A stretch of DNA of 64,000 nucleotides, taken from assembly GCF_963675165.1 (NCBI RefSeq), contig NC_087393.1:4859702-4923701 (forward strand), read 5' to 3'. Below are positions 19,785 to 57,500 of this stretch, piece by piece (positions within the stretch are counted from its first letter, which is position 1; each line of letters opens with the position of its first letter). Source of the stretch: Halichondria panicea. Its lineage: Eukaryota; Porifera; Demospongiae; Suberitida; Halichondriidae. A program made the translations under genes and the position numbers. Under the pieces are notes generated by a model, which ran no database searches, was not told the origin of the DNA, and saw nothing but the letters and a program-made list of their open reading frames with translations.

Positions 19785-20395
19785 TAGCCTCGAAATCAGA
19801 TACTTTTCCACGCGTCTTGATTTCAAGGATAATGACGTTATGTCTAAAAATAGCTTAAAATTACGTCATTTCTTAATTCGCTGTGTCATCTTCGTGGGGG
19901 ACCTCAGCTATGCATAAAAGGGGTGTCTTCCTCAGCTAAAATCATCCACAGCCGATCGCAACTAGCTGCAGTGTTTCACCATCACCAGTTGTAGTCCAAG
20001 ATGACAAGTTCACCAAGGCTACCTGGTCCCCGCTTACTTCGTTCAGCCATTGTCGAAGTAAAGAGATAACCCCACTGGCCTTTGCAGTCGAGCTATGGCT
20101 GTAAGGGCATGTCTGAGCAGTTAGTATCTCAACTGAGTCTAGCTGTGAGGACACCTGAGGTGGTTAATCTCGAAGAAAACTTTCGGCTCAAAGGGCACTC
20201 TCACCATACAAGCGGCCACGCTATCACTCTACAGAGTGCTCAGTGGATGGTTGGGAGTGTCTGGAGGGCCCCATACGTTGTCCGTCTGTCTGTTGCTAGG
20301 CTACTCGTTGGTCTGGCGCAGGCAGGGGGGCAGGGCATGGAATAGATCTGTACGATCATCTTCTATAGCAGTAGCGTCGACCACCGGCACCAGAT
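19785..20395. promoter_or_regulatory. 0.6-kb MEI1-side promoter module, copy 1
   Basis: It begins 20 bp upstream of the MEI1-like start codon. It contains two CRE/bZIP-like sites (TGACGTTA near 19832, TTACGTCA near 19861) and, on the plus strand, a TATA-like CATAAAAGG (19913-19921), followed by about 450 bp that is also kept in the other copies at 33781, 43704 and 53702. The arrangement suggests a bidirectional promoter, with MEI1 transcribed leftward and an unknown transcript rightward. Two overlapping frames of 70 and 87 codons stay open on opposite strands; neither resembles a known protein. Function inferred only from conservation and motifs. Confidence 0.5.
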
Positions 20396-21383
20396 AGAAT
20401 CTATAATTATAGTTCTATAGTCTGACAACAAAAGTTGTTGTGGGTTAATTTAACAAAACCTCAAGCTAGAAATCCAACACAGATAATTAGCATTTGTACA
20501 GTGACACTTATACATCATGCACACGCAAAATCTAACAGTTCATCGCCGTCACCAGTCTCGAGCAAAGGTTATGTCTAATTATGGTAGCTATATTATAGCC
20601 AGACTATAATTATATAAGCCACATGCATGCAACAATGATAATTATTGTCATTTGCTAGAACTCATTGTATGCTGTAAGATTCTATTCTTCTCCAATTTGC
20701 TTCTCATACCATTTAGAGTGTGCTGACTGCGTTTGCGTACCAGCTGGCCATGACATGCTATCAGGTTAATACTCTGACATTAAACATTTTCGTAATCATA
20801 TAATTATGTAATACCTCAAGCAAGAACCTCTTACAAGAGAGATCTCCTGGCAAAGACGGGACTAACATAAAGACTAAAATCTATTTGTGTATATATAATT
20901 ATGCTCATGCTTGCAGTTTCCACACTTTATATATTTTTTATAGAGTATAATTACACGGAATATACATTGTATAGTAATAAAGAACGATCTGCTATGAAAG
21001 TCAAACATGAAATTTATTAGGTTTGTATATGACAACGTTCATTGCATTCTTCAGATAATTCCTTCACACTCATCGGCAAACTCTGTATGTACATAATTAT
21101 ATGAGTATAGTGAAGTAAGTATATCCAAACTATATTGCTATATACAAAACACCTCATTAAATGCAGTTATAATTATTGGTAAAGTTTTTACTATACTAAA
21201 CGTATTAACATGTAGCTCCGACCATGCAGCTGGAGGAAATATGTACAGAGTGCCTATATAATAATAATTACAAGTTAGCTATTACAAACACCTATAGCCT
21301 CCTTCACAAGGCCTCAGTGTGTCCTGGGATCGAGGCTAACTAATACCAAGCTCAGTGTTACAAACATCTTCCAAGTTTTGTGA
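20396..21383. other. AT-rich spacer downstream of aGPCR-1
   Basis: No gene recognised. It is a spacer shared by the aGPCR units (the same order recurs at 34374-35338 and, partly, 27720-28130 and 44160-45570). It includes one complete 76-bp element (21289-21364) just beyond the aGPCR-1 stop codon. Confidence 0.6.
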
Positions 21384-22916
21384 TCACACACCTGACTCTT
21401 TCTTAGACATTTCCATGGTCGAGTTGTTATTAGACTCCAGTTTCAACGAACTGTCCAAGGATGGAGAGGCAACACTGGTATTGACATTGATGAGAGTGGT
21501 ACTCTGAAATGCAAAATAATGTACAATCATGTGTCACTGTAATTAGCTATACGGTCAGATTTAAGAGTGATACCTTGATGTTTTGACGTTGATGCTTTAC
21601 CATCTTTTCCTTCCACCATTTGGAGTACGCATCCCTCACTGGCTTAGAGAGAGGTACAAAGAGTATAAAAATGGCCACTCCTTGGAATGAAACGAAGATC
21701 GTGAAGATGTACGACACTGGAAGTAGAGCAGGGATGTCGAACACCAGAACACCTGTGTTGATAATGTTACAATCAAAATCTCATGTATTATTGTTCTCGC
21801 CAGTTATCCATGTCAGTCCCATGACAGTGACCAGTGACACAGACGACTTCAACCAAGAACTGTATCAGAAATACATACTTCAAACAATGCATAATTTGTG
21901 TCTGTATCATATCCACATACCTCATTTCCTGCCGCTTCCCTTGCCTCTTTTGGTGTCTACATATGATAACTATTGCCATGATAAAGAAGCCAACATTCAC
22001 CAAGAGAATAATCACCACTGGCACGATGAACGTCAGAATAAAATTAGTGTTGGAGTTCAACCAGCAGCTGCAAGCACATGCTATTATAAGACAGTGTAAA
22101 TAGTTATCGTCTCTATAATAATATAGGCAGACATAACCAGAGTGATAATGCATGCACTTGTGTTACGCCTCTTATTTTTTAGATCCCACTTGTGTGTGTT
22201 TAGCAGGGAATTATGAGCCATAATCTCATAGTTTCCCAGGGAATTATAAGCTTGAGGGTATAAAGTACAAGTATAATTTTTTTGAATGCACAGAAATGAT
22301 AATAAAGCTGTAGCTAGCTGCATGATAATTAGCTATGGCTGTTTAGTTTTTTCACTACCAGTTTCTATAGCGTTTGCTGGGTTGATGGTAGTGTTCACCA
22401 GTATCTTTTCTTGTCTCTACGAGGAACACTAAGAGCCAATGATTATAACAGTTCTGGGTGCATTGTCACAAGCATGAAAGCATGTCTTCAACTTGTAGCA
22501 TTTGTCAACTTCGTCCTTCTGTTTCTATCCTGCAGCCATGTTTCAAACAGTAGACTCCTGTGTCTTTTTGGGAATGATAGTGCACTGTAGCATTGCTGCA
22601 AGCTGTCTTGCTAGCTAGCCGTACATATCAGAACAGTTTACTGAGCTGGGGGTGGGGCTTGAGTGCAGAGAAAAGAGGAGGCTGGGCTCATTTGTTGCAG
22701 AGTGCTTCCTGCACAAGGTGGAGTCACTAGTTTTCCATTCCAATATGTAAGGCCAATGAAAGGTTATTTAGCAGAGAAGCAGAAATCATCTAGCTTGTCA
22801 AAACAGGACATTTTCAAAAATAAAGCTGTTGCTAAGGCTTGCTACTTTTATAGATACACTTTTTGCCTGAGGCAGCATGAAAAGTGGGATCTAAATCAGT
22901 TAGCACATGTGCATTC

Positions 22917-22992
22917 GGTATCTATGGTTATAGTGTCCCTCATCCCTCGGGCAAAGCCCTCGTGATATGGGACACTATAACACATAGATACC
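22917..22992. repeat. Hairpin element in an aGPCR-1 intron
   Basis: GGTATCTATG-GTTATAGTGTCCC (22917-22939) pairs with 22969-22992 with one extra base bulged. The loop holds CCTCGGGCAAAGCCCTCG, a second small stem. It is absent at the same place in aGPCR-2 and -3, so it is probably a small foldback insertion. Confidence 0.7.
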
Positions 22993-25900
22993 TCATGCCT
23001 ATGTACTATCTATAACATAGCACCTCTGTCACAAAACTTAAAATTCTGTATAATCAACATAAATATCTACACGTATAATTATATGCATACTTCGGTCTCG
23101 ATAAGAGAGCGACTGAACTAACACTATGGGAGTGGCTGCATGTATGTGTGTATGGTATGCATGGGAACAGGAAAAGCACTCTTGATGAGAATTAACTCAC
23201 ACTATGGTGGTTGTATTGCTGTTGATCAGCTGGTAGCCATAGCTATCCTCCAAGCCAGATAGAGCAAAGCCCAACGGAATACAGAGGGCCATGTACAGTA
23301 CAGGGGTACCTATATAGAGATAACATGAACACGATATCAAGTCTATTTGAATACAGCATACCATAGCTGACAATAGTGAAGCCGACAATGTACTCCCGTT
23401 CATGCTCTTTTACGAAGACTTTGACGAGGACCAGATACAAGACCACCCCCTCCATGAGCATCCACATGAAGGACACCAGTAACAAGTAGTGCATGAGAAC
23501 TGCTACTGTCCGACAACCAGGATCCACCACACCCCCTCCCCCGTGAGGGGTTACCCCACTCACAAACATCAGCTGTGCCAGAATTAGACTCGCACACAAG
23601 TTGATGTGGATGTAGTTACGCATATTCCAGAGAGACCTGCACAACCACTAGGATATGCCCATGGAATAATTCCCTCTCATATTTTCCCAGACATTTTTAG
23701 TAATGATATTGTAGATAATTTTGTTTGGAGTCAAAAAACTAGTTAAAAGTTAGTTAAGATAGGAGAGTAGATGCTCAGCTTAGTATTTGCACACCTTAAT
23801 GTTATAAAACGGGTAATATTAGCGAATTTTAGCGATTTTGTAATTAATGGAAAATGGTATACACTTTTGAGAGTATGCTAAAGCAAAAGCTAGCCTTATA
23901 TATAACGACGCTGTCAGTAAGAAGAGCAGTCATAATTATAGTTACCTTAGGTATACCAATGCTACAATGGTTGCTAGCATGGCTAGTACAGAGAGTGATA
24001 CACCAATGTAGCCAATCAGTCCCAGTACGAATGCATGCACACCTCCCACTATGGGCTGAGAGCTGAGGAGAATGGCAAAGTTAGTGAGATGTGTGCACTC
24101 GCACACAGTGTGTGTGGAGTTAGAGAGATTGTCATTTCTCTCACAGCCAGTAGTATTCCATCTTCCATTGACTAGCTGAGACTCACTGCACGAAATTATT
24201 TACAGTTAATTATAATTTTTTGGTTATAGGTTATATAGCCATAATTATAATACAGCAATGTTTAGAAGTGATTGTTGGGAGGCTTCTATCTTCTTCTATC
24301 TTATAGAAAATTGATTGCAGTATACTTTAAATTGGTCAAAACCCTGAAAAAATACAGAAGACCAAAGTAGAAAATTCCCTTGACAACACTACAACTATTA
24401 CCTACCTTCCTAGTATGAACTCCCAGAAAACACACTTTGTTTCGCTGTTATCCTGCATTATTGCTCATTGTGGTCAGACATGCATCAAAGGGGAGTGTAT
24501 AGTACTAGTTAAGGCCACTCTCGGTTTCTGGTCCACCGCCTGGATCAGATTTAGTATCTCATTTAAAGCCATATAGATTACAATTGCTTTTATAGGGACT
24601 TATATTGTGGTTTATTATTCGCGGTATCAAATTAGGTATGGTTCACTAAGGAATGCGAAAAGAATGAAGCTCATGCTCAAAAGCAATTGGCTGCTAACTT
24701 AGCAACAAGATTACGCAGGACTAGAGCAATCAGCAATAAGTATATATACAGGTTATAACGTCATGCCCTCGAGATCGATTTGAATTTTTATTTAGCTCTA
24801 TCTACATGCATGCATCCTTCGTATGAGTATATTAAACCTAAGACACTTAATTATACACATAAACTGAGTGAGGTGCCTGCATGCCCTTTACATCAAAGTT
24901 GGCCTTTCTTAGTGAGTGGTTTCCACTGTATGTAGCTACAGTGTACAAATGCTTCAGTTATCCAGGAGGGAGGGGAAGGGAATACAGGGCTCACCCCCTC
25001 TCCTCGTTAACACTAGCCTGCATGGTTACCAACTTACCTGCGCCAACTGTGAGGAGTGTTTCAGTGTGACAATGACTGGCTGACTGAGCTGAATGTTGGC
25101 TGTGTCACAGATTTTGTCCCCACACTGCAGACTGGTGGAGACCACTGGAGATGCTAACACAGTGTTCCTCTCTCCCGGCAGAGTCCCGGGCAACAGTCCA
25201 CTCATGTTCCTGTAGTAGACTGATGCCACAGTGACTGGTCCAGTTCCATTACCCATCATCCTCACTAACTCAGTGGGCACTCGGATGGAGCCATTGGTTG
25301 TTTCAATACCAGTGAAGTATGAGTCGTTGTTCCCATCTTGTTCTACCTCTTGGACTATCAGCTCTGTAGAACATTATTGCAAAACGTGCATTACAGATAC
25401 GTACGTATGGTTTAGAGTATGTGTGGTTTAAGAATATCTCTTTGAGGACCTGTTAAATGAAGCATGCATGTAGAATTATAATACCTTTTATGAGACAAAA
25501 CGTACATTTTCTGTTTACAGCTATACACTGTAAATTAGTGTGTTTCTATAGCTACAACAACTAATGACCTTAATTGTAACAAAAGGGAAATGAATTATGA
25601 TAACCTGTACATTGTACGTTTCGCACAATAACCTCCTCTCTAACCCATACCAATATTTGATGTCCTAAGGCCGTATTTAGTCAGAGAGAGCACATTAAAT
25701 GCCAGCTGCTCAATGGTAGCAAGCAGTGTACTCCCGACAATGGCGCTGGACTGTAGTGTGTGTGCATGAGTGAGCTTGTATGAGGAGGAGGAAGGTTGTA
25801 CACTAAATAGGTAAATGGTGCATGTCATGGAATGATGTTAAATAAACACATAAACACACCTGATTAGTGTTCAGTGCTTGTTCCAGCAAGTCATCACTCA

Positions 25901-26366
25901 CTTCCAAAACAATCTATATACAAGAAATGTTTACATCAATGACTTTCAGTTGTTCACAAATCATCGGGACTCACCTGACCAAACTGTTGGCTGTCGTTGA
26001 TACCTCTCGCCCGATTTACCATATCACAGAGCAGATACATAACAGCTATCCGGTCAACAGCTTGTGGATCCTTCCTCACCAAGTCTCGTAGAGAAGTAGC
26101 TGCTTGACCAGGAGGCTAATTGGAGATAGAAATTGACATGAAAATACTCACAAGATGACTTACTTTTTGCTGGATTGCTCTCAATTTTTCACTTCCATTT
26201 ATCTAAAGCAGGATGACAATAGAAAAAACATGTAAATTTTCTCATTGTACTTACAATGCTTAAAACATTTGAGATAGCAGATTCTAGTTCTTCGACCAAG
26301 GATGAATAAATGCTGAAAGTAACTGGAGCTGTTGGTGTTGATGCCACTTGAATGGAGCTTGTAGAG

Positions 26367-26520
26367 TAGGTAGTTAAGGTCCCCTTTTCTGCAGTTGTCA
26401 TATCCGAGGTAGTTGGCGTCACCTCTTCTGCAGTTGTCATATCCGAGGTAGTTGACGTCACCTCTTCTTCAGTTGTCACATCCGAGGTAGTTGCCGTCAC
26501 CTCTTCTTCAGTTGATGTGG
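26367..26520 (-). repeat. Coding minisatellite in the stalk of aGPCR-1
   Basis: About four units of 39 bp encode variants of SDMTTAEEVTPTT, a Thr-rich sequence likely to be O-glycosylated. The same block has about ten units in aGPCR-2 and is nearly absent in aGPCR-3. Confidence 0.75.
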
Positions 26521-27302
26521 TTAGATCACTTTCTACACTTGAATTGTTGATAGAAATGCCATTAAACATTTCAAAGAGTTGAGTGATGTTCAGTGGGGCT
26601 GTAGTTGCTATGCGACTAGCGACTGTTGTTTTATACTCACAGCCGAAGGTTGTACAGTTGAGACCAAACACTATCTTGTGATCATCAGAGCCATCAGAGC
26701 AGTCAGTAGATACACCGCCATTTCTAATCTCTTTATTCCAATTTGCTGAGCTGTATCAGTGTATAAAAATCTTGTACATAATGTATTTAGACATGGTTTT
26801 GGAGGTGTCTAGAAGCCCAAAGACACTGATTTACTATTCCGAGCGTACACGTGGCTAAATTACATTCATGGACACCGACAAAAGAGTGTCTAGATACTAG
26901 CTATAGTGCGCATGAGCAAATCTTGCCTCGAGGCTTACAACAAGTATACTGATTTTGCTTGACATACTAAGTAACTATGTAAGTTATAGCAAGAGCAGAT
27001 GATGGAGTGTGTTACTACACGGATTCTGCATCATCTAGCTATGTACAAATCATTCCACATAATTATGCCAAAATGCTAAGTGCTGCTAACATTATTCATG
27101 ATATTCATTATTATTAGCGTTATCAGCCGCACATGTACAGAGCACTTAGCACATTACAAACAAGGAGTATATGGTTAAGACAATAGTGAATCCGCAATAC
27201 TATGCATATAATTATATATAGTAAGACGCTCTATCCCCTTATCTGCTCCTGCATGGTTATAGGTTTACTACGTCTCATCCTCCTCTGAGGCAAATTTCTA
27301 CT

Positions 27303-27400: not shown

Positions 27401-28132
27401 ACTTTATATTGATAAACAGCAGTGCCACATGGTTGTCTGCACATGAGCCGTTGCTTCCACAAAAAGCAGAATTCGACTCTAGGTTATCAATTATACCTTC
27501 ATCCATTAATTATGCATCACATCACTGTACGCATGCGCAGTGACGAATACAGTCTTTCTGCGAAAGTTTATATCCGAAATACCCGCTATACGATATATAA
27601 CACACCTTACGTACATGTATAAAGAAGAAGAAAATGAGCTTTCTAAAACTATAATTACATATACAAACTGATCCAATGATTTCATAATTCCTCACCATAC
27701 AAACCACAGAGTATAGTGCAGATATAATTATTTTCTCATCAAAATAATTACAATTGACATTGCACAGCTATACTATAATAAAGAAATGATAATGCTTCTG
27801 TACATAACGTATAATGAATGAATTAAAGTCAAACATCAATAACTATTTAGTACATTTGTTTTTATGACTAACGTTATAGATAATTCCTTCACACTCATCA
27901 GCAAACTCTGTATGTACATAATTAATTATGAGTATAATTATAGTGTTCATTATTATCAGTAATGGATAATCATTGTTCCAACTTATAGCTAGATAGTCTA
28001 ATTAATTGCAGTTGGTAAAGTTTTTGCCGGGTATACTAAACATGTATAGCTCTGACCAGCTGAAGGAACTATGTACAGAGAGCCTATATAATCATAATTA
28101 CAAGTTAGCTATTACAAGCACCTATAGCTATT

Positions 28133-30724
28133 ACAAACACCTATAGCCTCCTTCACAAGGCCTCAGTGTGGCCTGGGATCGAGGCTAACTAATACCAAGC
28201 TCAGTGGTACAAACACCTATAGCCTCCTTCACAAGGCCTCAGTGTGGCCTGGGATCGAGGCTAACTAATACCAAGCTCAGTGTTACAAACACCTATAGCC
28301 TCCTTCACAAGGCCTCAGTGTGGCCTGGGATCGAGGCTAACTAATACCAAGCTCAGTGGTACAAACACCTATAGCCTCCTTCACAAGGCCTCAGTGCGGC
28401 CTGGGATCGAGGCTAACTAATACCAAGCTCAGTGGTACAAACACCTATAGCCTCCTTCACAAGGCCTCAGTGCGGCCTGGGATCGAGGCTAACTAATACC
28501 AAGCTCAGTGGTACAAACACCTATAGCCTCCTTCACAAGGCCTCAGTGTGGCCTGGGATCGAGGCTAACTAATACCAAGCTCAGTGTTACAAACACCTAT
28601 AGCCTCCTTCACAAGGCCTCAGTGTGGCCTGGGATCAAGGCTAACTAATACCAAGCTCAGTGTTACAAATACCTATATAGCCTCCTTCACAAGGCCTCAG
28701 TGCGGCCTGGGATCGAGGCTAACTAATACCAAGCTCAGTGTTACAAACACCTATATAGCCTCCTTCACAAGGCCTCAGTGCGGCCTGGGATCGAGGCTAA
28801 CTAATACCAAGCTCAGTGTTACAAACACCTATAGCCTCCTTAACAAGGCCTCAGTGCGGCCTGGGATCGAGGCTAACTAATACCAAGCTCAGTGTTACAA
28901 ACACCTATAGCCTCCTTCACAAAGCCTCAGTGTGGCCTGGGATCGAGGCTAACTAATACCAAGCTCAGTGTTACAAACACCTATAGCCTCCTTCACAAGG
29001 CCTCAGTGTGGCCTGGGATCGAGGCTAACTAATACCAAGCTCAGTGTTACAAACACCTATAGCCTCCTTCACAAGGCCTCAGTGCGGCCTGGGATCGAGG
29101 CTAACTAATACCAAGCTCAGTGGTACAAACACCTATAGCCTCCTTCACAAGGCCTCAGTGCGGCCTGGGATCGAGGCTAACTAATACCAAGCTCAGTGTT
29201 ACAAACACCTATAGCCTCCTTCACAAGGCCTCAGTGTGGCCTGGGATCGAGGCTAACTAATACCAAGCTCAGTGTTACAAACACCTATAGCCTCCTTCAC
29301 AAGGCCTCAGTGTGGCCTGGGATCGAGGCTAACTAATACCAAGCTCAGTGTTACAAACACCTATATAGCCTCCTTCACAAGGCCTCAGTGTGGCCTGGGA
29401 TCGAGGCTAACTAATACCAAGCTCAGTGTTACAAACACCTATAGCCTCCTTCACAAGGCCTCAGTGCGGCCTGGGATCGAGGCTAACTAATACCAAGCTC
29501 AGTGGTACAAACACCTATAGCCTCCTTCACAAGGCCTCAGTGCGGCCTGGGATCGAGGCTAACTAATACCAAGCTCAGTGTTACAAACACCTATAGCCTC
29601 CTTCACAAGGCCTCAGTGCGGCCTGGGATCGAGGCTAACTAATACCAAGCTCAGTGGTACAAACACCTATAGCCTCCTTCACAAGGCCTCAGTGTGGCCT
29701 GGGATCGAGGCTAACTAATACCAAGCTCAGTGTTACAAACACCTATAGCCTCCTTCACAAGGCCTCAGTGTGGCCTGGGATCGAGGCTAACTAATACCAA
29801 GCTCAGTGTTACAAACACCTATAGCCTCCTTCACAAGGCCTCAGTGTGGCCTGGGATCGAGGCTAACTAATACCAAGCTCAGTGTTACAAACACCTATAT
29901 AGCCTCCTTCACAAGGCCTCAGTGCGGCCTGGGATCGAGGCTAACTAATACCAAGCTCAGTGGTACAAACACCTATAGCCTCCTTCACAAGGCCTCAGTG
30001 CGGCCTGGGATCGAGGCTAACTAATACCAAGCTCAGTGGTACAAACACCTATAGCCTCCTTCACAAGGCCTCAGTGCGGCCTGGGATCGAGGCTAACTAA
30101 TACCAAGCTCAGTGGTACAAACACCTATAGCCTCCTTCACAAGGCCTCAGTGCGGCCTGGGATCGAGGCTAACTAATACCAAGCTCAGTGTTACAAACAC
30201 CTATAGCCTCCTTCACAAGGCCTCAGTGTGGCCTGGGATCGAGGCTAACTAATACCAAGCTCAGTGGTACAAACACCTATAGCCTCCTTCACAAGGCTTC
30301 AGTGTGGCCTGGGATCGAGGCTAACTAATACCAAGCTCAGCGTTACAAACACCTATAGCCTCCTTCACAAGGCCTCAGTGCGGCCTGGGATCGAGGCTAA
30401 CTAATACCAAGCTCAGTGTTACAAACACCTATAGCCTCCTTCACAAGGCCTCAGTGCGGCCTGGGATCGAGGCTAACTAATACCAAGCTCAGTGTTACAA
30501 ACACCTATAGCCTCCTTCACAAGGCCTCAGTGCGGCCTGGGATCGAGGCTAACTAATACCAAGCTCAGTGGTACAAACACCTATAGCCTCCTTCACAAGG
30601 CCTCAGTGCGGCCTGGGATCGAGGCTAACTAATACCAAGCTCAGTGGTACAAACACCTATAGCCTCCTTCACAAGGCCTCAGTGCGGCCTGGGATCGAGG
30701 CTAACTAATACCAAGCTCAGTGTT
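28133..30724. repeat. 34-copy tandem array of a 76-bp element
   Basis: Units begin ACAAACACCTATAGCCTCC and repeat every 76 bp; four units have 2 extra bases (CTATATAGCC). The span is 2592 bp, exactly 34 units after that correction. Units differ mainly at two sites (CAGTG[C/T]GGCC and AGTG[T/G]TAC). Each unit can fold: TAGCCTC pairs with GAGGCTA, and AGGCC with GGCCT. The other aGPCR units carry a single copy (21289-21364, 35265-35342) or a remnant (45650-45675). Since 76 is not a multiple of 3, the open frames here are not coding. Confidence 0.92.
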
Positions 30725-30730
30725 ACAAAC

Positions 30731-31070
30731 ATCTTCTAAGTTGTGCACCTGACTCTTTTTCCATGGCCAAGTTGCTGAATATAATTATTAGACTCCAGTT
30801 TCAACGAACTGTCCAAGGATGGAGAGGTAACACTGAGTCTGGTGCTGACACTGATGAGAGTGGTGCTCTGAAATGCAAAATAATGTACAATCATACGTCA
30901 CTATAATTATATACGGTCCGATTTGAGAGTGATACCTTGATGTTTTGACGTCGATGCTTTGTCAACTTTTCCTTCCACCATTTGGAGTATGCATCCCTCA
31001 CTGGCTTAGAGAGAGGCACAAAGAGTATAAAAATGGCCACTCCTTGGAATGAAACGAAGATCGTGAAGAT
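30731..31070 (-). pseudogene. Fourth aGPCR copy, last two exons only
   Basis: 30936-31070 matches most of aGPCR exon 17 (TM7 and the start of the tail: FVSFQGVAIFILFVPLSKPV), and about 30740-30866 matches exon 18. Similarity stops abruptly at 31070 inside exon 17, where the sequence switches to a copy of the RALBP1-like 3' region. There are no other receptor exons, so this is a remnant. Confidence 0.75.
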
Positions 31071-31745
31071 TCTTGTTGCTCAGCTGCAAGGAATTAAGAA
31101 CAGAGTAAAGTAGAGCACAATGAAAAACAGTTGGTATACAACAATGTACAGTAGTTGGACCTAGGGAAAGCAATATTTATAGTATGCAAATATAACAAAG
31201 AGAGTACTTGGGTACAACACTTCTAGGAATCTGTTGTTACACTGGTGAGAATTAATGTACCAATGAACACTTGCAAGAGTGCACTACTGGGAATAGTGGA
31301 AAGGAAGCAATTAGCAAAAAATGTCAGAAGGAGATGATTCTAGGAATCTGTGGCAATAGGAACAGTGTACGGACATTACACTGATTCAGAATGAACATGC
31401 AATGAATTATAAAGAAAACAATTAGTTACACAAAAATGTCATAGGGAGAGGATTCTAGGACTCTGCTGGCAATTGGAACAGTGTAGGGACATTTATACAA
31501 TACACTGAATGTATGCAAAGGGCAGGACATTACATGCACCATTACATGATATGCATGAGTAATACCATGGTAATACTTAGACTCACATCTAACTCTTTGT
31601 TGTGCCACTTCAGAGCAGCCACTTGCCTGGCCAAGTCTGTTTCATCACCCTATATGTATGTCATAACTATTAGAAAGCATCATGTCCTAATGTAGCTGTC
31701 AAACAATTATGTGGTGTTTATAATTATAGCCATAAAAGCACTGTG
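31071..31745 (-). pseudogene. Fragment of the RALBP1-like 3' end
   Basis: This matches about 54656-55310: the intron before the last exon, the exon encoding DLARQVAALKWHNKELD (here about 31588-31650) and the next intron. It lacks the last exon and all upstream exons. It is a duplicated gene fragment, presumably carried with the adjacent aGPCR unit. Confidence 0.7.
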
Positions 31746-32360
31746 TGCCAACAAATACACTGCATACGGATTCAGGTAGCTATAGCGCCGGGAAAATGTT
31801 CGTTAGGTGCAAAGTTTCGCATTTTTCGACAGTGACAAGTGAAACCTTTGAAGGCGTCTCAGCAAACAAACAGGATGGCGCCCGTCTTGACGTTGTTGTG
31901 GACGGATTCTGGGGAAGTACCTTTGAAAGAACGTACCTAGATGTGAGCTCGAGGGTATTCAACCCTCTGGCCCCCTCTAACCAAAAGCGCTCTATGTCCG
32001 CCACATACAGGAGCCACGAAAAAGAAAAGAAAACAAAGAGTCCGTGAGATCAACTCTTCAATCTATGGTGAGATAGAACACTCCTCATTCTGCCCCCTCG
32101 TGTTTTCGTTGACAGGAGGACTGGCCCCAATCGCAACCACTTTTTATAAAAGACTTGCCTCCCAATTATCGGAAAAGTGGAAACAACCCTATGGCCCCAC
32201 GATGCGGTGGCTGAGGTGCCATATTTACTTCTCCTTATTGAGATCATGCATCATGTGCATTCGTGTGCATGCATTCGAGGAGCAAGGTCATCCGCAAACT
32301 GCTTCAACTTACCCTTACCGTCAGCTCGCAGCGACTGTAGACGTAACAATTGCTGACTAG
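31745..32360 (+). pseudogene. Retroelement-derived ORF fragment, copy 1
   Basis: Translated pieces read RLDVVVDGFWGSTFERTYLDV, FNPLAPSNQKRSM, PLVFSLTGGLAPIATTFYKR and RWLRCHIYFSLLRSCI. This resembles a C-terminal, nuclease-like region (R.D..GFW...F.DVRVFNP) widely repeated in marine invertebrate genomes and linked to retroelements; that link is from memory. Small insertions and deletions relative to copy 2 (6 bp, 11 bp, 24 bp) break the frame between 32040 and 32090. Confidence 0.55.
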
Positions 32361-33260: not shown

Positions 33261-33270
33261 GAAACTGGAG

Positions 33271-43430: not shown

Positions 43431-43489
43431 TATGTACTTTCATAATTACGAACCATACAAACCACAGAGTACAGTGCAGATATAGTTTC

Positions 43490-43704
43490 TCACCAAATAG
43501 CAGTCCACATAGATGCTGCACTACTCTTGAACCTGTCTGTGGAGAGTACACTCTGCTCGGAGGAGTTGCACGCATGTGCATGCAGTAGAGCTCAGGAGTG
43601 CTTGGAATTCCCCTAGAATATTCTTGATGTGAATGTTTAGCTCTCCTTTTGAGTGATTTTCCAGTCTCTCAGTTGCACATGCAATGCACAGCTTTGGAAA
43701 GGTT
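43490..43704 (-). pseudogene. MEI1-like exon 1 fragment, copy A
   Basis: This matches about 19465-19682: the end of exon 1 with its donor side, stopping within exon 1 before the start codon. At 43704 it joins directly to the middle of the promoter module (equivalent to about 19975), so about 290 bp carrying the start codon, CRE-like sites and TATA-like box are missing. Confidence 0.75.
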
Positions 43705-44152
43705 CACCCTCACCAGTTGTAGTCCAAAATGACAATAGGCGACCTAGCGTTCAATTGGAGACGGATCGGCCTGGGATCGAGGCTAACCTGGTCCCCGCTT
43801 ACTTTGTTCAGCGATTGTCGAAATAAAGAGATAACCCCCACTGGCCTTTGCAGTCGAGCTATGGCTGTAAAGGCATGTCTGAGCAGTTAGTATTTCAACA
43901 GAGTCTAGCTGTGAGGACACCTGAGGTGGTTAATCTCAAAGAAAACTTTCGGCTCAAAGAACACTCTCACCATACAAGCGGCCACGCTATCACTCTACGG
44001 AGTGCTCAGTGGATGGTTGGGAGTGTCTGGAGGGCCCCATACGTTGTCCGTCTCTCTGTTTCCAGGCTATTCGTTGGTCTGGCGCAGGCAGGGGGGCAGG
44101 GTATGGAATAGATCTGTACGATCATCTTCTATAACAATGACGTCGACCACCA
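43704..44152. promoter_or_regulatory. Promoter module, copy 3 (5'-deleted)
   Basis: This corresponds to about 19975-20375 and lacks the presumed promoter part. It contains a replacement of about 50 bp near 43738-43786 that includes GGCCTGGGATCGAGGCTAAC, a segment of the 76-bp element. Confidence 0.5.
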
Positions 44153-44159
44153 GACAATC

Positions 44160-45560: not shown

Positions 45561-45570
45561 ATTATGTAGA

Positions 45571-48500
45571 CTAATAAACTTGTATTATTATTATGTAGCT
45601 CTGCCCAGCACTGAAAGAAATGAATGGAACTGTACAGAGTGCAGCAAACACCAAGCTCAGTGTTACAAACATCTTCCAATTAAGTTGTGCAATCATGCAT
45701 GCACATATGCACCTGACTCTTTCAGACTCCAGTTTCAACGGACTGTCCAAAGATGGAGAGGTAACATTGGTGCTGACACTGATGAGAGTGGTACTCTGAA
45801 ATGCAAAATAATGTACAACTATACGTCACTGTAATTATAAGGTCAGATTTGAGAGTGATACCTTGATGTTTTGACGTCGATGCTTTGCCACCTTTTCCTT
45901 CCACCATTTGGAGTACGCATCCCTCACTGGCTTAGAGAGAGGCACAAAGAGTATAAAAATGGCCACTCCCTGAAATGAAACGAAGATCGTGAAGATGTAC
46001 GCCAGCGGGAAAAGAGCAGGGACCTCGAACACTAGAAGACCTGTGTTGATAATGTTACAATCAAAATCTCACATATTATTGTTCTCACCAGTTATCCATG
46101 TCAGTCCCATGACAGTGACCAGTGACACAGACGATTTCAACCAAGAACTGTATCAGAAATACTTCAAATAATGCATAATTTGCGTCTGTATCATATCCAC
46201 ATACCTCACTTCCTGCCGCTTCCCTTGCCTCTTTTGGTGTCTACATATGATAACTATTGCCATGATAAAGAAGCCAACATTCACCAAGAGAATCACCACC
46301 ACTGGCACGATGAATGTCAGAATAAAATTAGTGTTGGAGTTCAACCAGCAGCTGCAAGCACATGCAGGTATTATAATGACAGCGTAAATATTTATTAATT
46401 ACATAGGCTTGACTCAGGGGTCACTGCTAAAGGCAGACATAGCCGGAAAATAAGAGTGACAATGCACTTGTGTTACGCCTCTTTAGAGTACCTCTACCAC
46501 AAACTTAAATTTCTGAATAATTAACAATTGGTGCACGAGCTTTCGATATGAGAGCGACTGAACTAACACTATGGGAGTGGCTGCATGCATGTATGTGTGT
46601 ATGGTATGCATGGGAACAGGAAAAGCACTCTTGATGAGAATTAACTCACACTATGGTGGTTGTATTGCTGTTGATCACCTGGTAGCCATAGCTATTCTCC
46701 AAGCCAGATAGAGCAAAGCCCAACGGAATACAGAGGGCCATGTACAGTACAGGGGCACCTAGGGACAACATGAACACGATATCAAGTCTATTTGAATAAC
46801 GGTTAATAGTCTCTCCCTGGTACCAATTAGATTTCGAACATCAATGTACCAATACTCATTCTTCCCACTAACTTTATGGAACAAACTTGTTAGTAAGTAC
46901 AATATAGAAGATATTGTTACTGTCAGTGTGTTTAAATATTTTCTGTTTAGGATGCACTTTACATCTAGCTACTAGCTAATTGTGTATCCTATGCTATATG
47001 CTGAATTATTATAAAAAATAAAAAATAAAAAATAACAGCATACCATAGCTGATAATAGTGAAGCCGATAATGTACTTCCGTTCATGCTGTTTTACGAAGA
47101 CTTTGACGAGGACCAGATACAAGACCACCCCCTCCATGAGCATCCACATGAAGGACACCAGGAACAAGTAGTGCATAAGAACTGCTGCCGTCCGACAACC
47201 AGGATCCACCACACCCCCTCCTCCGTGAGGAGTTAACCCACTCACAAACATCAGCTGTGCCAGAATTAGACTCACACACAAGTTGATGTGGATATAGTTA
47301 CGCATATTCCATAAAGACCTGTACAATTAACACACTCAATAAGTAGCCTCGTTATGTAACGTATGCTTGTTGCCTAATAAATGTTGATGTTATTCCAATA
47401 ACAAGTTCAGAATTATTGGTCAGAGATCAAACAGAGATATTATTACCAATACAACCTCTATATAAAGGAAGTTGTCAGTAAGAAGTGCAACCACATAGTT
47501 ACCTTAGGTATACCAATGCTACAATGGTTGCAAGCATGGCTAGTACAGAGAGTGATACACCAATGTAGTCAATCAGTCCCAGTACGAATGCATGCACACC
47601 TCCCACTATGGGCTGAGAGCTGAGGAGAATGGCAAAGTTGGTGAGATGTGTGCACTCGCACACAGTGTGTGTGGAGTTAGAGAGACTGTTATTTCTCTCA
47701 CAGCCTTTAGTATTCCATCTTCCATTGACTAGCCGAGAGTCACTGCACAAAATAAGAATACCAATATTTAGAAATGAATATTGGGAGGCTTCTATTTTAG
47801 AAAATTGATTGCAGTAATCAATGGATATAAACACTGAAAGGGAAATGGTAATTAACTTCATCCCTCTATGGAGTAAATAGTGCATGCACTCGACAGTATA
47901 CAACTATTACCTACCTTCCTAGTATGAACTCCCAGAAAACACACTTCATTTCACTGCTATCCTATAAAGAACAGAGAAACCGAACTTTTATAGAGGTGAC
48001 CTTAATTGGAGTAGTTTAATTTGTACAAAAATGTTCTTATATCACAGTTGGCCTTTCTTTAGAGGTGGCCTTAAAGTTGGTTTCCACTGTACGTAGCTAC
48101 TGTGTTACTGTACAAATGCTTCAGTTATCCAGGGGGAAATACATGTAGGGCTTCTCCTCATTAAGCCTAGTTTAACGTTACCAGCTCACCTGCGCAAACT
48201 GTGAGAAGTGTTTCAGTGAGACAATGACTGGCTGGCTGAGCTGAATGTTGGCTGCGTCAAAGATCTTGTCCCCACACTGCAGACTGGAGGAGACCACTGG
48301 AGATGCTAACACAGTGTCCCTCTCTCCTGGCAGAGTCCCGGGCAGCAGTCCACTCATGTTCCTGTAGTAGACTGAAACCACAGTGACTGGTCCAGTTCCA
48401 TTACATATCATCCTCACTAACTCAGTGGGCACTCGGATGGAGCCGTTGGTTGTTTCAATACCAGTGAAATACGAGTCATTGTTCCCATCTTGTTCTACCT

Positions 48501-51500
48501 CTTGGACTATCAGTTCTGTAGAACATTATTGCAAAGTGTGCATACAGTAATGAACTCACAAGCATATGGAATTTCTTTGAGGACCTGTAAAGTGAAGTAT
48601 GCCAGTATAATTATATCACCCTTTTATGAGATGAAACTGGAAAGTACTAGGAGTACTAGCCTGACTCCAGCCCCTTAAAATGTACATTTCCTGTTTACAG
48701 CTATACACTGTAAATTAATCTGTTGCTACAGCTACAACAACTAATGACTTTAGGCACGAGTGCAGGCCGCAGGCCCCTAGGGCAAACAGAATTACTAAGC
48801 CAATAATTATATCAAATGTGTGCACGATGTATAACAACTGATTTTTTGCATTCCTTGTGCATTCTTTTCCGTGTACACATCACTCCTTTTATAGGACACC
48901 TAGTTTGTATAACTGCTTGTGGTCGGCTAATAATTATACTTAACGCTGTACTGTCATGTTAACTGTACACTAAACGTCATGTGACCTATAGACCACAAAT
49001 AACTTCAACCTTATGAAAGTGGGTGGATTTTAGATAACTTCAGCCAGTAACTAACCGCTATGCCAATATCTAAATACTATAATGATCTCGGGCCTAAAGG
49101 ACCTTGACCACAATCTACTACCGGGCCAATAAACTGCTTGTGGCACGAATTGCCATGTAATAACTAATTTGTTGCCTTGAAAACCATTTGCTGCGTATAG
49201 ATACGGAGAAAAAATAGTTTGGTAGTTTTGTTCTGTTTTTGGTGGCTGGAATTACAATATTGTATAGTAAGTGCATCGAAACCATGTCTAATTACCATAC
49301 CAAGTCTAAGTCTAAACCATACCAATATTTGATGTGCTAAGGCCGTTTTCGTTCGGAACAAGCACGTTAAATGCCAGCTGCTCAATGGTAGCAAGCAGTG
49401 TACTCCCGACAATGGCGCTGGACTGTAGTATGTGTGCATGAGTGGGCTTGTATGATGGGGAGGGAGGTTGTAACACTAAATAAGTAAATGGTGCATGTCA
49501 TAAACACACACAAGTGAACATTACCTGAGTAGAATTATATTACACACATGAACATACCTGAGTAGTGATCAGTGATTGTTTCAGCAAGTCATCATTCACT
49601 TCCAGAACAATCTACAATAAATGCTTACAAGTGGCATTTAAATCATTTGTACTCACCTGACCAAACTGTTGGCTGTCATTGATACTTCTCGCCGCCTGAT
49701 TTACAATGTCACTGAGCAGATATATAACAACTCCTGGGTCAACTTCTGTACCATTCCTCACCACCAAGTCTAGCAGAGAAGTAACTGCTTCAACAGGAGG
49801 CTAGTTGAGGAGATGATAATAATCAGAAGGGACTAATATTTATGTTATATAGTTATTGCCTAGACTTTATGGCAGTAAACCTCTGAGGCTGACAGTAAAG
49901 CCCCGAGGCAAAGGATACATGGTTTTAGCCTAAGATGAGAGTAACATATTCACAAGATTAGAATGTGACTTACTGTTTGCAGGATGGCTCTCAAGTCGTC
50001 ATTTTCATTTATCTAAGGCAGGAAGACAATGAAAAACATGCAAATTTTTAGCATACTTACAATGCTTAAAACATTTGAGATAGTAGATTCCAGCTCTTCA
50101 GCCAAAGATGAATCAATGCTGGAAGTAGCAGGAGCTGTGGTAGCTGTCATCACCTCTTCTTCTGTTGATGTGGTAATGTCTTTAAACGTTTCTAAGAGTC
50201 GAGTGATGTTCAGTGGGACTGTAGTTGCTATGCGACTAGCGTCTGTTTTTCTTTTCTCACAGCCGAAGGTTGTACAGTTGAGACCAAACACTATTTTGTG
50301 ATCATCAGAGCCACCAGAGCAATCAGTAGATACGCCACCATTTCTGATCTCTTTATTCCAATTATTTGAGCTGTACGAGTGTATCAAAATCTTATACATT
50401 CAAATATAGCAAAATACCTCAAATATCCCTGATCAAATCCATCCTCCAGTAGACTGATGCTGGTTTCATTCACAATCAAGCTAATAGACACATTATCCAG
50501 TGTCACTGTGTCCCTCTTTACACCTGTTTTTAAGTAAACGTATTGCAGCCATCTTATCTGCAGTCCATCTCTGAGATAGTCATCTCCGCACACACTTATC
50601 TTGAATGACTCAACTTCACTACAATTGTAATAAGGAACATCATAGTCTCTGATTCGGAATGATGGATTATTGGTGTATAATTGATGATCATGGTACGCTA
50701 GAGGAATCCAATCACCGTCTCTGTCCCAGTTGCCTAGCGATACCTCTATACCCTCATTATGGCGATCAATCTTGTCACAGTCATCTGGGGTCAAATCCAA
50801 CACATATGATAGCTCTCTGTGTAAGAGAACACACAATCATACGCAGCAGATAAGAAACACACTCACATTCTTGGGTTACTGTCTTTGCAATTCATCGGTG
50901 GTGGTTGCTTATCAACAAGAGCTGAACCATTGACAACCATATTACATCCTTCTGTTTGGCCATTATCCAGCGTAACAGGGAGGAACACCACACCCCTTGG
51001 TTCCCCTGCGCTACCATCACAGAACTGTAGAGGACCGGTATCATTTATTGTGATTCGACTGCTGTTAATATAACAGCTTCTTATTCTGCATTTAATACAT
51101 AATTATTATATGATGTCCAGATAAAATGCATTGACTTACTCGTTAAGGAGATCAAAGTAACTATTGCCATCAAATGTAACCAGCAGTTTGCTGATTTCCC
51201 AGCAGTTGCACAATCCACCGCCATGTTCTGGCTGTACTATTCTCAGCTGCACAGAATCAACGCTGTCTTGATCAGAACTTTGTAGAGTATGTCCAGTTAC
51301 ATTATAGTCATCATCTGAAAGATAGTATACAGCATAGATTAATATGGTATACACATATACGAAGTATAAGTGGAAAATCCAATGCAAAATTTACCAGTAG
51401 TCATTGTCTTAAGAGTGCTCCACTGGTTAGGTATCAATGATGTATTGACCCTCTCCAGCCATCGATACTCCACTCTAATAAATGCAGGACCAGGGTAAGT

Positions 51501-51638
51501 CAGCCCAGTGCTACAGTTGAGGGGTGAGTTACTCGTGACAGTTATATTGAGTGAGAAGTTAGAACATCTTGCTCCTTGAGAGAACAGTACAATACTGCAA
51601 GCCAGCACTAACACTGCAAGTTCTCTCTTAGTCTGCAT
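45571..51638 (-). CDS. Adhesion GPCR copy 3 (aGPCR-3), apparently intact
   Basis: Exons: 51638-51395, 51314-51140, 51085-50867, 50816-50418, 50370-50061, 50012-49974, 49800-49657, 49611-49558, 49422-49323, 48515-48190, 47961-47915, 47742-47503, 47318-47044, 46758-46650, 46351-46205, 46147-46089, 46040-45862, 45795-45571; 3291 nt, 1096 aa, all phases consistent. Layout: signal peptide (about 1-24); Cys-containing ectodomain (exons 1-4, with GNWDRDGDWIPLAYHDH, CGDDYLRDGLQIRWLQ and TLDNVSISLIVN); a short Thr-rich stalk (exon 5); GAIN (exons 6-11, SQPVIVSLKH, KCVFWEF); a GPS with the expected HL/T cleavage site in CECTHLTNFAILLSS; TM1 (exon 12), TM2-4 (exon 13), TM5 (exon 15) and TM6-7 (exons 16-17, GLTWITG, VSFQGVAIFILF). 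The last exon has lost the stop codons used by the paralogs and reads on for about 30 extra hydrophobic residues. Ligand unknown. Confidence 0.82.
46797..47036 (+). mobile_element. 5'-truncated LINE 3' end inside an aGPCR-3 intron
   Basis: The plus-strand frame reads FRTSMYQYSFFPLTLWNKLV and ends at TAG, like the C-terminus of non-LTR reverse transcriptases. A short 3' region ends in (TAAAAAA)n, the expected LINE tail. It sits in antisense orientation within the intron that is only 48 bp in aGPCR-2 and 52 bp in aGPCR-1. Splice sites are intact on both sides. Confidence 0.7.
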
Positions 51639-53472: not shown

Positions 53473-53599
53473 AGTTTATATATAACTGAAAAATTAAATA
53501 CAGAAAAATGAGCTGCTGAAAAGAAAAGTTTCTACACGCTAATACTGATTTTTCATAATTCCTCACCATAATTATGGAACCACAGAGTACAGTGTCATT

Positions 53600-53700
53600 T
53601 TCTCACCAAATAGCAGTCCACATAGATGCTCCACTACTCTTGAATGTGTGAAGATAGTACCGGAGGAGTCACACACATGCGCAGTAGAACTCAGGGGCTT
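53600..53700 (-). pseudogene. MEI1-like exon 1 fragment, copy B
   Basis: This matches about 19471-19585 (exon 1 end with donor), with small changes, then jumps to the start of the promoter module. It marks the left edge of the rightmost, truncated aGPCR unit. Confidence 0.7.
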
Positions 53701-53701
53701 A

Positions 53702-54297
53702 GCCTCGAAATCAGATTACTTTTTCATGTGTCTTGATTTCGAGGTAATGACGGCTGTCTAAAAATAGCTTGAAATTACGCCATTTCCTAATTGGTGTGTC
53801 ATCGTGGGGGACCTCAGCTAGCTACATAAAAGGGGTGTCTTCCTCAGCTATAATTATCCATCCACAGCCGATCGTGCTGCAGTGGTTCACCATCACCAGT
53901 TGTAGTCCAAGATGACAAGTTCACCAAGGCTACCTGGTCCCCGCTTACTTCGAGGAGACATTGTCGAAGTAAAGAGATAACCCCACTGGCCTTTGCAGTC
54001 GAGCTATGGCTGTAAGGGCATGTCTGAGCAGTTAGTATCTCAACAGAGTCTAGCTGTGAGGACACCTGAGGTGGTTAATCTCAAAGAAAACACTCGGCTC
54101 AAAGGGCACTCTCACCATACAAGCGGCCACGCTATCACTCTACAGAGTGCTCAGTGGATGGTTGGGAGTGTCTGGAGGGCCCCATACGTTGTCCGTCTGT
54201 CTGTTGCTAGGCTACTCGTTGGTCTGGCGCAGGCAGGGGGGTAGGGCATGGAATAGATCTGTACGATCATCTTCTATAGCAATAACGTCGACCACCA
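53702..54297. promoter_or_regulatory. Promoter module, copy 4
   Basis: Near-identical to the first module. The plus-strand TATA-like box is kept (CATAAAAGG at 53825-53833), but the CRE-like site is changed to TTACGCCA. The module is followed by a short piece of unit spacer that runs directly into the 3' end of the RALBP1-like gene, so no receptor exons follow. Confidence 0.5.
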
Positions 54298-54535
54298 GAT
54301 CGACAATCGAGGTGGAACAATGGTCATGCAAATATGCACACATGACAATAATTATTGTCAGACAGTCTTTATTACTTATTATTTTCACATTGTCATTTAA
54401 TAAGGCTGTTAGACTTTATACAACATGTATTATTGCTTCATGATTATATTATGCAAAGCTGACAATTAACATTGAGCATGAGAATAGTTGCGAGTATAAA
54501 ACATGTATTAAAACATGACAAACACATAATTACAA

Positions 54536-57500
54536 TCAATAAGACACAGTTTCATCTAAGTTGAGTTGTCGTCTGATTGGAATGATTTTTAGTTTAACAT
54601 TGAGGTCCATAATTGCTTTCCCCTCCTCTTGTATGCCATCAATTAGATTTTTGTTACGCAGCTGCAAGGAATTAAGAACAGAGTAAAGTAGAGCACAATG
54701 AACAATAGTTGAGGAGAATATACAATGAAAAACAGTTGGTATAGTTGGACCATAAGGAAAGCACTAATTTAAAGCAGTACATGTAAGGAAAGCAGTATGC
54801 AAAATGTAACAAGGAGAGTATTTGGGTGCATTTCTAGGAATCTGTTGCCATGTGTACATGCACTGCACTGCTGAGAATTAATGTACCAATGAACACAAGA
54901 GTACACTACTGGGAATAGTGGCTGAATAGGGAAGCAATTAGCAAAAAATGTCACTAAGATAAAGGAATATGTGGCAGTAGGAACAGTGTAGGGACATTAC
55001 ACTGAATGTACCTACAGCATTATACAAAGGCCAGGGAATTACAGATTACATGCATGAGTAAATACCATAGACTCACATCTAACTCTTTGTTGTGCCACTT
55101 CAGAGCAGCCACTTGCCTGGCCAAGTCTGTTTCATCACCCTATATGTATGTCACAACTATTAGAAAGCATCCTGTCCTAATAAAGGGCAGCTGGCAAACA
55201 ATTACATGACTGTACAAGGAAGAGGAAGGCCATCAATTAAGCTAATCACATGTGTAATGAAGTGTTTATATATAGCCATAAAAGCACTGTGTACCAACAA
55301 TACACTGCACTAAGTACGAATAGGTAACTGAAAGAGCTGCAAAAACAAACACTGTAATCCTGTTACCAGTAAGTATGTGATCAGGTGATGTACTTACACT
55401 GTCCTCGTCTGAGCAGGCGACCTCTACGATATGAGACTGTCGATTTCGTAAACGACGCTATAAGAGAACAAACAAGCAATGTACAAGTTGAACAAATATA
55501 GTGACATTGCCACAAACCTTGTAGCTGTCGATAAGGTCGGCCTCGCGTTTCAGGGCAGTTTTCAGCTCGTCTTTCTTTGAATACAGCTCCTGTGTTAGAA
55601 AATAGGTAATGGTCAACACACAAAGAAAGTTGAATGCAGTTACAACCCAAAATTAAAATTTGGTTATAAACAGTTTTGCGTAATCTTGCACGTGTGTGGT
55701 ACACATGATGTACACTGTAGATACATGTATAACAGTAAACATACCTCACTTTCTGCCACCAGTGTGGCCTCCATCAGCATCAGTGTCTTTACAAATTCTG
55801 AAGAGAGAACAGAATACATGATGAGCAAAGAACGGAGAACAGAGATAAATAAAGGAGGGAGGGAGTGAAGGTCTGCACTTACCACTTTCCCCGTTAGTAG
55901 GGGCCAGTTGGGCCGATGGTGGTGGCATCATAGGTTTCTTGGGGGCAGCTGCTGATTTTGCTTGTAACGCCTTTTTCTGTTGCAAGGAGGAGAGACAGAT
56001 TCAAACAATACACAATACACACACATGCAGTAGTCCATCTTTGCATGGGTTATACTGTTACTGTATAGTAATCCACAATAGACACATGAAACCCAACCCC
56101 CAAAGTACACCACACCTTTCTCCGAAGTATAGTGATGGCTCTCTGCAGTTCCCAGAGGTAGTCATCTTTCTTATTGTATCTGTTGGTCATCCTGCTGTGG
56201 ACATTGTCAAGGATACCGGTCAACCTCTGCAGCTCAGTACTCACTTCCCTGAGGGGGGGAGGGGCAAGAATTATGTAACAGATGAACAACAGTCCTTTCA
56301 GCAATTAACACACAAAGAAGTTTACAACTACAACTCCAGGATACAGAACGTAGCTTCATGATTCTATGGGGAACAATGGTAGTACTTTAAAGACAAAATA
56401 ATCAACATCCATTATATAGCATCCAAAACAGGCCAGACTCACTCTTCAGTTTTCAGACTGGCCACATGACTGAGGTGATTCTCAACCTTGAGTCGACCAC
56501 TGTCCCTCTTGTCAGGCTTCATGTATCTGGAGGAATGCATGGACATTAAGATAACAGCCTCACACTGCTTTATGTAATAGTTGTAACACAAGCACGAGTG
56601 CCACACGGGATATATTGGCTGAGTAGTGATCTAGGCCTGAGGGTCGCAGGCCCCGAGGGCAAAAATTATTGTTTTTTAGCTATAGCTATTACAGTGACTG
56701 TATGCTGACTGAGTACGAGGCAAGCGTTGGCAAGGTTTATTAATTTATATACATGCCCCCAGCAAAAACCTCATCTCACACAACATACTTTTATTATTAT
56801 ACTATTATCAGGAGTTCATTAAAACTCTTGCTATTATACATACACTCTAAAGTATTACGATATTGTACGTGCATCCCTAACTCACTTTTTGAGCTCTAAA
56901 TCTCCGAAGAGCTCTTGTCGGTTGTTATAGAGTGCGTGCAGGGCAGGTGCTGATATCTGGAGGGTGGGGCTGAACACAATCACGATGTTGGGGAGCGTCA
57001 TCTTGTTCACCGAGGACTGTGCAGAGAGAGAGAGGGGTGTGTGTCACTAGGATGGGCCGATTAGAAAACTCTGAAATGCTGATAATAGATAGACACTGCA
57101 TGATACATGATTAGAGCCTGTGTTATGGAGAAGAATATATATGTAGATTTTGCCATTTGGTACAAATTTTGCCCCAGTAGCTGCTAAATTTCTTAACTCA
57201 TTGCAATCGGACAATTTAGGCAAAATAATGTCTCCCTGCAAACCCAACCCACCTTATCGATGATATGGCCCATGTGTGTGATTAGCCAGCTGAGCATAAG
57301 CTTCTCTAGCGGGGGCACCTCTTCCATGAGCTCCTCTAGAGCTTTGTACTGATCACCAGGGGGCAGCACTGGGGGGGGGGGGGGGGGGGGGGCGAGAGGT
57401 CATGTGAAGGTACATTCTGTATGGAAAGTGCATAATAGTTGACCTCCTAGCCCCTTGGCAAAAAAATTGACCCCTGATTATGTGCAAATAAAACTGTTCA

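What the first reader, a model, noticed from the sequence alone, without database searches (positions are those of the whole stretch)
19785..54540. Adhesion-GPCR cluster built by repeated segmental duplication from a MEI1-aGPCR boundary
Units share the order MEI1-exon-1 fragment, 0.6-kb module, spacer, 76-bp element, aGPCR. Five starts can be seen: 19.5 kb (with the real MEI1), about 27.65 kb (partial), 33.8 kb, 43.4 kb and 53.6 kb (truncated). The copies differ in exon content, mobile elements and stalk length, so the birth and decay of receptor genes can be read in one locus.
Basis: partly seen in the sequence, partly recalled or inferred. Interest (0 to 1): 0.7.

Follow-up and report, generated by a model that had tools for sequence, protein, structure and literature searches.

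The report
Duplicated receptor genes between two neighbours
Three copies and one fragment of a cell-surface adhesion receptor gene, in different states of repair, sit between two neighbouring genes together with copied pieces of the start of one neighbour: a mostly ordinary case of gene duplication and decay, with an untested hint that receptor copies now sit behind the control region of a meiosis gene.

Summary
On the minus strand, MEI1 (ATG 19,764, running left) and RALBP1 (stop at 54,539) look like the original neighbours. The "0.6-kb module" is the RALBP1-MEI1 intergenic region, and the 53.6-kb "truncated unit" is its RALBP1-attached end. Between lie three adhesion-GPCR copies and one fragment. 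Copy D (51,638-45,571; 18 exons, 1,096 aa) is open throughout, with GAIN, GPS (HL|T) and 7TM. Copy C has a 4-bp frameshift at TM1. Copy A lacks exons 1-4 and its 7TM changes look neutral. Fragment B fuses RALBP1 exon sequence to receptor exon 17. Between C and D the 7TM is constrained; the ectodomain is not. Stalk exons differ in frame (310, 496, 712 bp). This is birth and death by tandem segmental duplication, a known process, with signs of exchange between copies. Worth testing: receptors C and D (7TM constrained) each have a MEI1 upstream region plus an exon-1 splice donor directly upstream on their strand; decayed A does not. That could give MEI1-like expression, but there is no expression evidence and conversion explains the conserved module as well. 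The ectodomain has only a sub-threshold Reelin match. Species not identified.

The parts
19476..19764 (-). MEI1 exon 1 in the apparently functional MEI1 gene (ATG at 19,764; donor GT at 19,475); the gene continues left, its 3' limit not determined
   Evidence: ORF and splice sites; hand-joined N-terminal exons match recalled human MEI1, 33% over 246 aa, E 1e-28; HEAT repeat 0.0026, sub-threshold
19781..20387 (-). Module copy A = MEI1 upstream region (RALBP1-MEI1 intergenic); core 53% GC
   Evidence: Alignment of four copies; no frame open along the whole module; an 87-codon plus-strand stretch open in all four varies at 4 syn: 8 nonsyn codons, no coding signal; not a folded RNA, z +1.07
21384..26750 (-). 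Receptor copy A: exons 5-18 open (776 aa), exons 1-4 missing, GC donor at exon 16; 7TM codon changes on its branch 12 nonsynonymous : 3 synonymous (neutral-like)
27680..27745 (-). Unit B: remnant of MEI1 exon-1 end with altered donor (GATGAG) and adjoining sequence
28131..30731 (.). 76-bp tandem array, 34.1 copies, 97% matches, inside unit B
30736..31070 (-). Unit B: receptor exon 18 and part of exon 17
31067..31764 (-). Unit B: RALBP1 fragment (one exon 65/65 identical to the RALBP1 copy, an intron stretch 41/253 different), fused into receptor exon 17 at about 4 shared bases (read by eye)
33789..34365 (-). Module copy C (no MEI1 exon 1 match beside it; other repeat DNA to its left)
35339..42387 (-). 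Receptor copy C: 18 exons, ATG 42,387; 4-bp duplication in exon 12 (37,297-37,054, TM1) shifts the frame; the following 7TM is open (336 aa) in the other frame; stalk exon 712 bp; low end = stop codon of exon 18 in the unshifted frame
43486..43702 (-). MEI1 exon-1 piece with intact splice donor (intron from 43,493), 1.1 kb upstream of receptor C ATG
43706..44156 (-). Module copy D (with small insertion), followed by RALBP1 3'UTR-like sequence at 44,193-44,306
45571..51638 (-). Receptor copy D: open 18-exon adhesion GPCR, 1,096 aa; GAIN, GPS (HLT at residue 718), 7TM; stalk exon 310 bp
53599..53695 (-). MEI1 exon-1 piece with intact donor (intron from 53,606), 2.0 kb upstream of receptor D ATG
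53700..54343 (-). Module copy E = RALBP1-MEI1 intergenic region still attached to RALBP1
54539..58743 (-). RALBP1 gene, 3' exons (stop codon at 54,539); 5' limit not determined
   Evidence: RhoGAP 1.3e-13; PDB 2mbg RalA-binding protein 1, E 1.7e-18; ORFs

Best explanation
Ancestrally RALBP1 and MEI1 were direct neighbours on one strand. A receptor gene came to lie beside or inside this junction, and segments with RALBP1 3' sequence, the intergenic region, MEI1 exon 1, the receptor and a spacer were tandemly duplicated several times. D split first; A, B and C share a later insertion (the 76-bp element), and A and C both lack the RALBP1 3'UTR piece that D keeps. The array then decayed by deletion joins (B), a 5' truncation (A), repeat insertion (between B and C) and a 4-bp slippage (C), leaving D open. 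The product of D is a standard adhesion GPCR: hydrophobic leader, ectodomain, Thr/Ser-rich stalk of variable length, GAIN with an HL|T cleavage site, tethered agonist TNFAILLSSQP, 7TM. Shown: anatomy, relative order, reading frames, constraint on the 7TM. Inferred: the duplication mechanism (unequal exchange after an initial end-joining duplication), autoproteolysis and signalling (by homology), and loss of function of A and C.
For: Repeat blocks and order; gene models with GT-AG sites (one GC donor, copy A) in three copies; domains; best PDB relative ADGRL3, E 1.9e-62; A-C closest overall (exon 94.9%, intron 91.2%), D outside (exon 92.4-92.5%, intron 75.6-78.4%); 7TM Ka/Ks 0.26 for C-D, syn vs nonsyn p 4e-6; A branch 12N:3S vs C+D 20N:22S, p 0.037; B fusion junction; RALBP1 and MEI1 identity.
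Against: No transcript or read data. The e17-e18 block does not show the A-C pairing (A-C 7.5%, C-D 5.2%, B-D 5.5%), and one A-C stretch is nearly identical (9/588 against 111/1960 and 55/692 elsewhere), so exchange between copies blurs the tree. Ka/Ks of A-C and A-D in the 7TM is 0.5, only weakly different from 1 (p 0.048, 0.035). How the receptor first entered is unresolved: MEI1 intron 1 of copy A shows no clear remnant of the receptor flanks.
Confidence: 0.85

Rival explanations
1. Promoter and exon capture: because everything is on one strand, duplication put copies of the MEI1 upstream region plus MEI1 exon 1 and its splice donor directly upstream of receptors. Receptors C and D are (or were) expressed from the MEI1 promoter in meiotic cells, and this kept them; A, whose upstream copy was deleted, decayed. 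(This adds to the best explanation rather than replacing it.)
For: Geometry and intact donors 1.1 and 2.0 kb upstream of the ATGs of C and D; altered donor and no module match upstream of A. C and D have constrained 7TM, A not. The module differs less than receptor synonymous sites (C-D 23/372 vs 88/712, p 0.001; A-D 24/372 vs 54/492, p 0.02) and introns (p < 1e-13). Precedent: in Drosophila yakuba tandem duplications change expression by shuffling regulatory elements and making chimeras, and 23 of 30 de novo structures form with expression in testes (PMC5460883, abstract read).
Against: No expression data. Only three receptor copies. Module conservation depends on block limits: a core chosen after viewing gives 16/324 vs flanks p 1.5e-6, but the whole module, 28/375 vs RALBP1 3'UTR copy 14/110, gives p 0.12. 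Copy C's module has no receptor with a 7TM downstream yet is also conserved (A-C 7/372), so gene conversion explains it as well. The receptor's own promoter may lie in the 1-2 kb between.
Confidence: 0.2
2. Assembly artefact or alleles laid side by side.
For: Some marine invertebrates are highly heterozygous (recalled).
Against: No second MEI1 body or full RALBP1 in the self-comparison; copies are 5-8% different in exons and 9-24% in introns; lesions are copy-specific; a 2.6-kb array is resolved.
Confidence: 0.05
3. Concerted evolution by gene conversion between copies sets much of the divergence pattern, and the low divergence of the module is a by-product, not a sign of function.
For: Module divergence is low in all four copies (1.9-7.5%) while spacers differ by up to 36%; the e17-e18 block groups differently; one A-C stretch around TM1-TM2 differs at 9/588 sites against 111/1960 and 55/692 in other stretches.
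Against: The exon-intron contrast and the constraint in 7TM show selection too; no formal conversion test was run.
Confidence: 0.35

Closest known systems
Adhesion GPCR family (7tm_2 + GAIN/GPS), nearest solved relative latrophilin ADGRL3
   Same: GAIN, GPS with HL|T, tethered-agonist stretch, 7TM
   Different: Ectodomain has no Pfam domain above threshold, only a weak Reelin-subrepeat-B match
Sponge adhesion GPCR repertoire (Amphimedon queenslandica, 40 receptors; PMC4302439, passages read)
   Same: Many sponge-specific adhesion receptors; the paper describes adjacent clusters for rhodopsin-type receptors
   Different: The words Reelin and tandem do not occur in that text; the species here is unknown
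Chimeric and regulatory-shuffled tandem duplicates (Drosophila yakuba; PMC5460883, abstract)
   Same: Tandem duplication can put a neighbour's 5' region next to another gene
   Different: Here only sequence, no expression, and repeated several times at one locus

Membership tests
Adhesion GPCR | 7tm_2 seven-helix domain | tested here: met
   PF00002 9.7e-45 in D, 9.8e-45 in A
Adhesion GPCR | GPS motif with HL|T/S | tested here: met
   PF01825 2.3e-14 in D, 6e-15 in A; HLT at residue 718 of D
Adhesion GPCR | GAIN domain | tested here: met
   In D, Pfam PF16489 3.7e-5 but 23.7 bits against a cut-off of 26.5, and no GAIN hit in A at E<=1; met through ADGRL3 chains that cover this stretch (residues 469-1010, 1.9e-62; 524-730, 7.9e-15)
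Adhesion GPCR | Autoproteolysis and tethered-agonist signalling | not testable with these tools
   needs expression
Reelin-repeat ectodomain | Reelin subrepeat profile match above cut-off | tested here: not met
   PF21471 0.003 (D) and 0.00067 (C), 17.8 and 19.9 bits against 27; second half of ectodomain no family; no PDB match at E<=10; AlphaFold2 of exon 4 alone pLDDT 32.6, unusable
Tandem duplicate gene cluster with birth and death | Paralogues in one orientation sharing flanks, with intact and dead copies | tested here: met
RALBP1 | RhoGAP plus Ral-binding coiled coil | tested here: inconclusive
   RhoGAP 1.3e-13 and best PDB hit RalA-binding protein 1; Ral-binding domain only 0.033, below cut-off
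MEI1 | Full-length similarity to animal MEI1 | tested here: inconclusive

The most novel reading that the evidence does not exclude
Repeated tandem duplication has re-wired an adhesion receptor family to a meiosis gene: each surviving receptor is driven from a captured MEI1 promoter and exon 1, giving germ-cell-expressed, fast-evolving surface receptors (possible gamete or germ-cell recognition) with stalks of different length.
Probability: 0.15. Interest if true: 0.65.

Novelty: new member of a known kind. Interest (0 to 1): 0.35.

Why it matters
It is a compact record of how an adhesion receptor family grows and dies: four copies at different stages, with stalks of three lengths. If the MEI1-promoter arrangement is functional, it would be a clear case of tandem duplication giving receptors a new expression site. 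Otherwise it is ordinary gene-family turnover.

Tried and rejected
Rejected: module as last coding exon of a neighbour (my first idea; note). A short minus-strand ORF end is conserved, but RALBP1 already stops at 54,539 and no frame is open along the whole module. Two plus-strand stretches (87 and 79 codons) stay open in all four copies but vary at 4 syn: 8 nonsyn and 4: 10 codons, so show no coding signal. Rejected: module as structured RNA (z +1.07). Rejected: the 4-bp difference of A and the 0.2-kb insertion of D near TM4-5 as lesions; both fall in an intron. Led nowhere: relatives in viral and prokaryote contigs (7 and 33 pattern hits, none confirmed); own-genome requests; Rfam at gathering threshold and tRNA scans (0 hits); AlphaFold2 of exon 4, so no fold search was run; PDB for the ectodomain (0 hits at E<=10) and for the MEI1 string (one hit at 1.4, taken as chance). 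Paper searches showed nothing in their listings that describes this locus; (Reelin + adhesion GPCR + sponge) listed 1 unrelated paper.

Caveats: exon models are by comparison only. The strength of module conservation changes with block limits. Ka/Ks is Nei-Gojobori on 24 to 1025 codons per comparison. Branch counts leave out columns with gaps.

Full report
What is there. Self-comparison of the window finds large direct repeats between about 19.5 and 54.5 kb. All genes concerned are on the minus strand. From right to left the order is RALBP1, then a series of receptor copies with repeated flanking pieces, then MEI1.

Neighbours. The gene ending at 54,539 is most likely RALBP1: its hand-joined C-terminal exons match RhoGAP (1.3e-13) and, best in the PDB, RalA-binding protein 1 (1.7e-18); the Ral-binding domain profile matches only below its cut-off (0.033). 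Pfam gives only a weak HEAT repeat. The repeated 0.6-kb module lies between RALBP1's 3' end and a MEI1 exon-1 piece at 53,700-54,343, and again at 19.78, 33.8 and 43.7 kb. No frame is open along all of it, two shorter plus-strand stretches open in all four copies show no coding signal, and it has no unusual fold. I read it as the intergenic and promoter region of MEI1; that it is a promoter is inferred.

Receptors. Comparison of three copies gave an 18-exon model. Copy D encodes 1,096 aa with a hydrophobic leader, ectodomain, stalk, GAIN (just under its Pfam cut-off), GPS and 7TM, nearest to ADGRL3 among solved structures (1.9e-62). Copy C has the same exons but a 4-bp duplication in the exon of TM1; after it the 7TM remains open for 336 aa in another frame. 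Copy A lacks exons 1-4, is otherwise open (776 aa) and uses a GC donor at exon 16. Unit B keeps only exon 18 and part of exon 17, fused at about four shared bases to a piece of RALBP1 with one exon 65/65 identical to the original, and holds a 34-copy 76-bp array.

Age and selection. A and C are closest overall (exons 94.9%, introns 91.2%); D is more distant (exons about 92.4%, introns 76-78%). The 76-bp element is in A, B and C but not at that place in D. Between C and D the 7TM is constrained (Ka/Ks 0.26, p 4e-6) while the ectodomain exons 1-4 are not (0.92), and the two differ (p 0.0003). By single branch the 7TM has 12N:3S in A, 7N:9S in C and 13N:13S in D (the D count includes the path to the A-C ancestor; 3 codons with three states left out). 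So A looks long dead, C recently damaged, D in use. Stalk exons are 310, 496 and 712 bp in D, A and C, differing by whole codons, with a 39-bp repeat in A and C.

Exchange between copies. Exons 17-18 do not follow this tree, and an A-C stretch around TM1-TM2 differs at only 9 of 588 sites against 111 of 1960 and 55 of 692 in two other stretches. Gene conversion or later exchange is therefore likely, though not formally tested.

Mechanism. Duplications of segments reaching from RALBP1 3' sequence through MEI1 exon 1 and the receptor, followed by deletions and insertions, explain the parts seen. How the receptor first came in is open: it may have been nested in MEI1 intron 1 or have arrived with a duplication of the junction. 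MEI1 intron 1 of copy A shows no clear remnant.

Promoter capture. Because transcription runs leftward, the MEI1 pieces at 43.5 and 53.6 kb lie 1.1 and 2.0 kb upstream of the ATGs of receptors C and D, with exon-1 splice donors intact; upstream of A the donor is altered and no module matches. Module divergence is about half that of receptor synonymous sites (p 0.001 and 0.02). The result is weaker when the whole module is set against the RALBP1 3'UTR copy (p 0.12) and stronger for a core block chosen after viewing (p 1.5e-6). Gene conversion fits as well, and the module of copy C, with no whole receptor behind it, is also conserved. Tandem duplications with such effects are known in Drosophila yakuba (PMC5460883, abstract).

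Ectodomain. Two copies give sub-threshold matches to Reelin subrepeat B over the same residues (0.003 and 0.00067). They are close paralogues, so this is one lead, not two. Structure prediction of exon 4 failed (pLDDT 32.6). I do not call it a Reelin domain.

Limits. Species unknown; no relatives found in the two collections scanned; no reads or transcripts. An adhesion GPCR gene was up-regulated after microbial signals in one sponge (PMC6208332, passages read), which is only a hint for function. After the filing check I corrected the ends of copies A and C and added the conversion stretch, and raised the conversion rival from 0.3 to 0.35 for that reason.

Noticed in passing
24-2471 / 5553-8013 and 4172-5498 / 8013-9523: A second tandem duplication (96% over 2.5 kb): a 364-aa membrane protein with a DDD motif, glycosyltransferase-like by eye with no Pfam hit above cut-off, and a sulfotransferase (Sulfotransfer_1 4e-13).
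   Followed up: partly
31918-32263 and 33274-33600: Two copies (89%) of a repeat whose ORF text I recall from 3' ends of non-LTR retrotransposon polymerases; Pfam gave no match above cut-off for the one tested.
   Followed up: partly
61200-62900 (+): 5' exons of a myosin heavy chain gene (Myosin_head 2.2e-34, Myosin_N 2.2e-12, hand-joined string) on the other strand from RALBP1.
   Followed up: partly
43770, 21323, 35304: The motif CCTGGGATCGAGGC of the 76-bp element also occurs inside a small insertion in module D, hinting at a mobile or dispersed element.
   Followed up: no
11807-12200: Long imperfect AC-rich tandem repeat in the MEI1 region.
   Followed up: no
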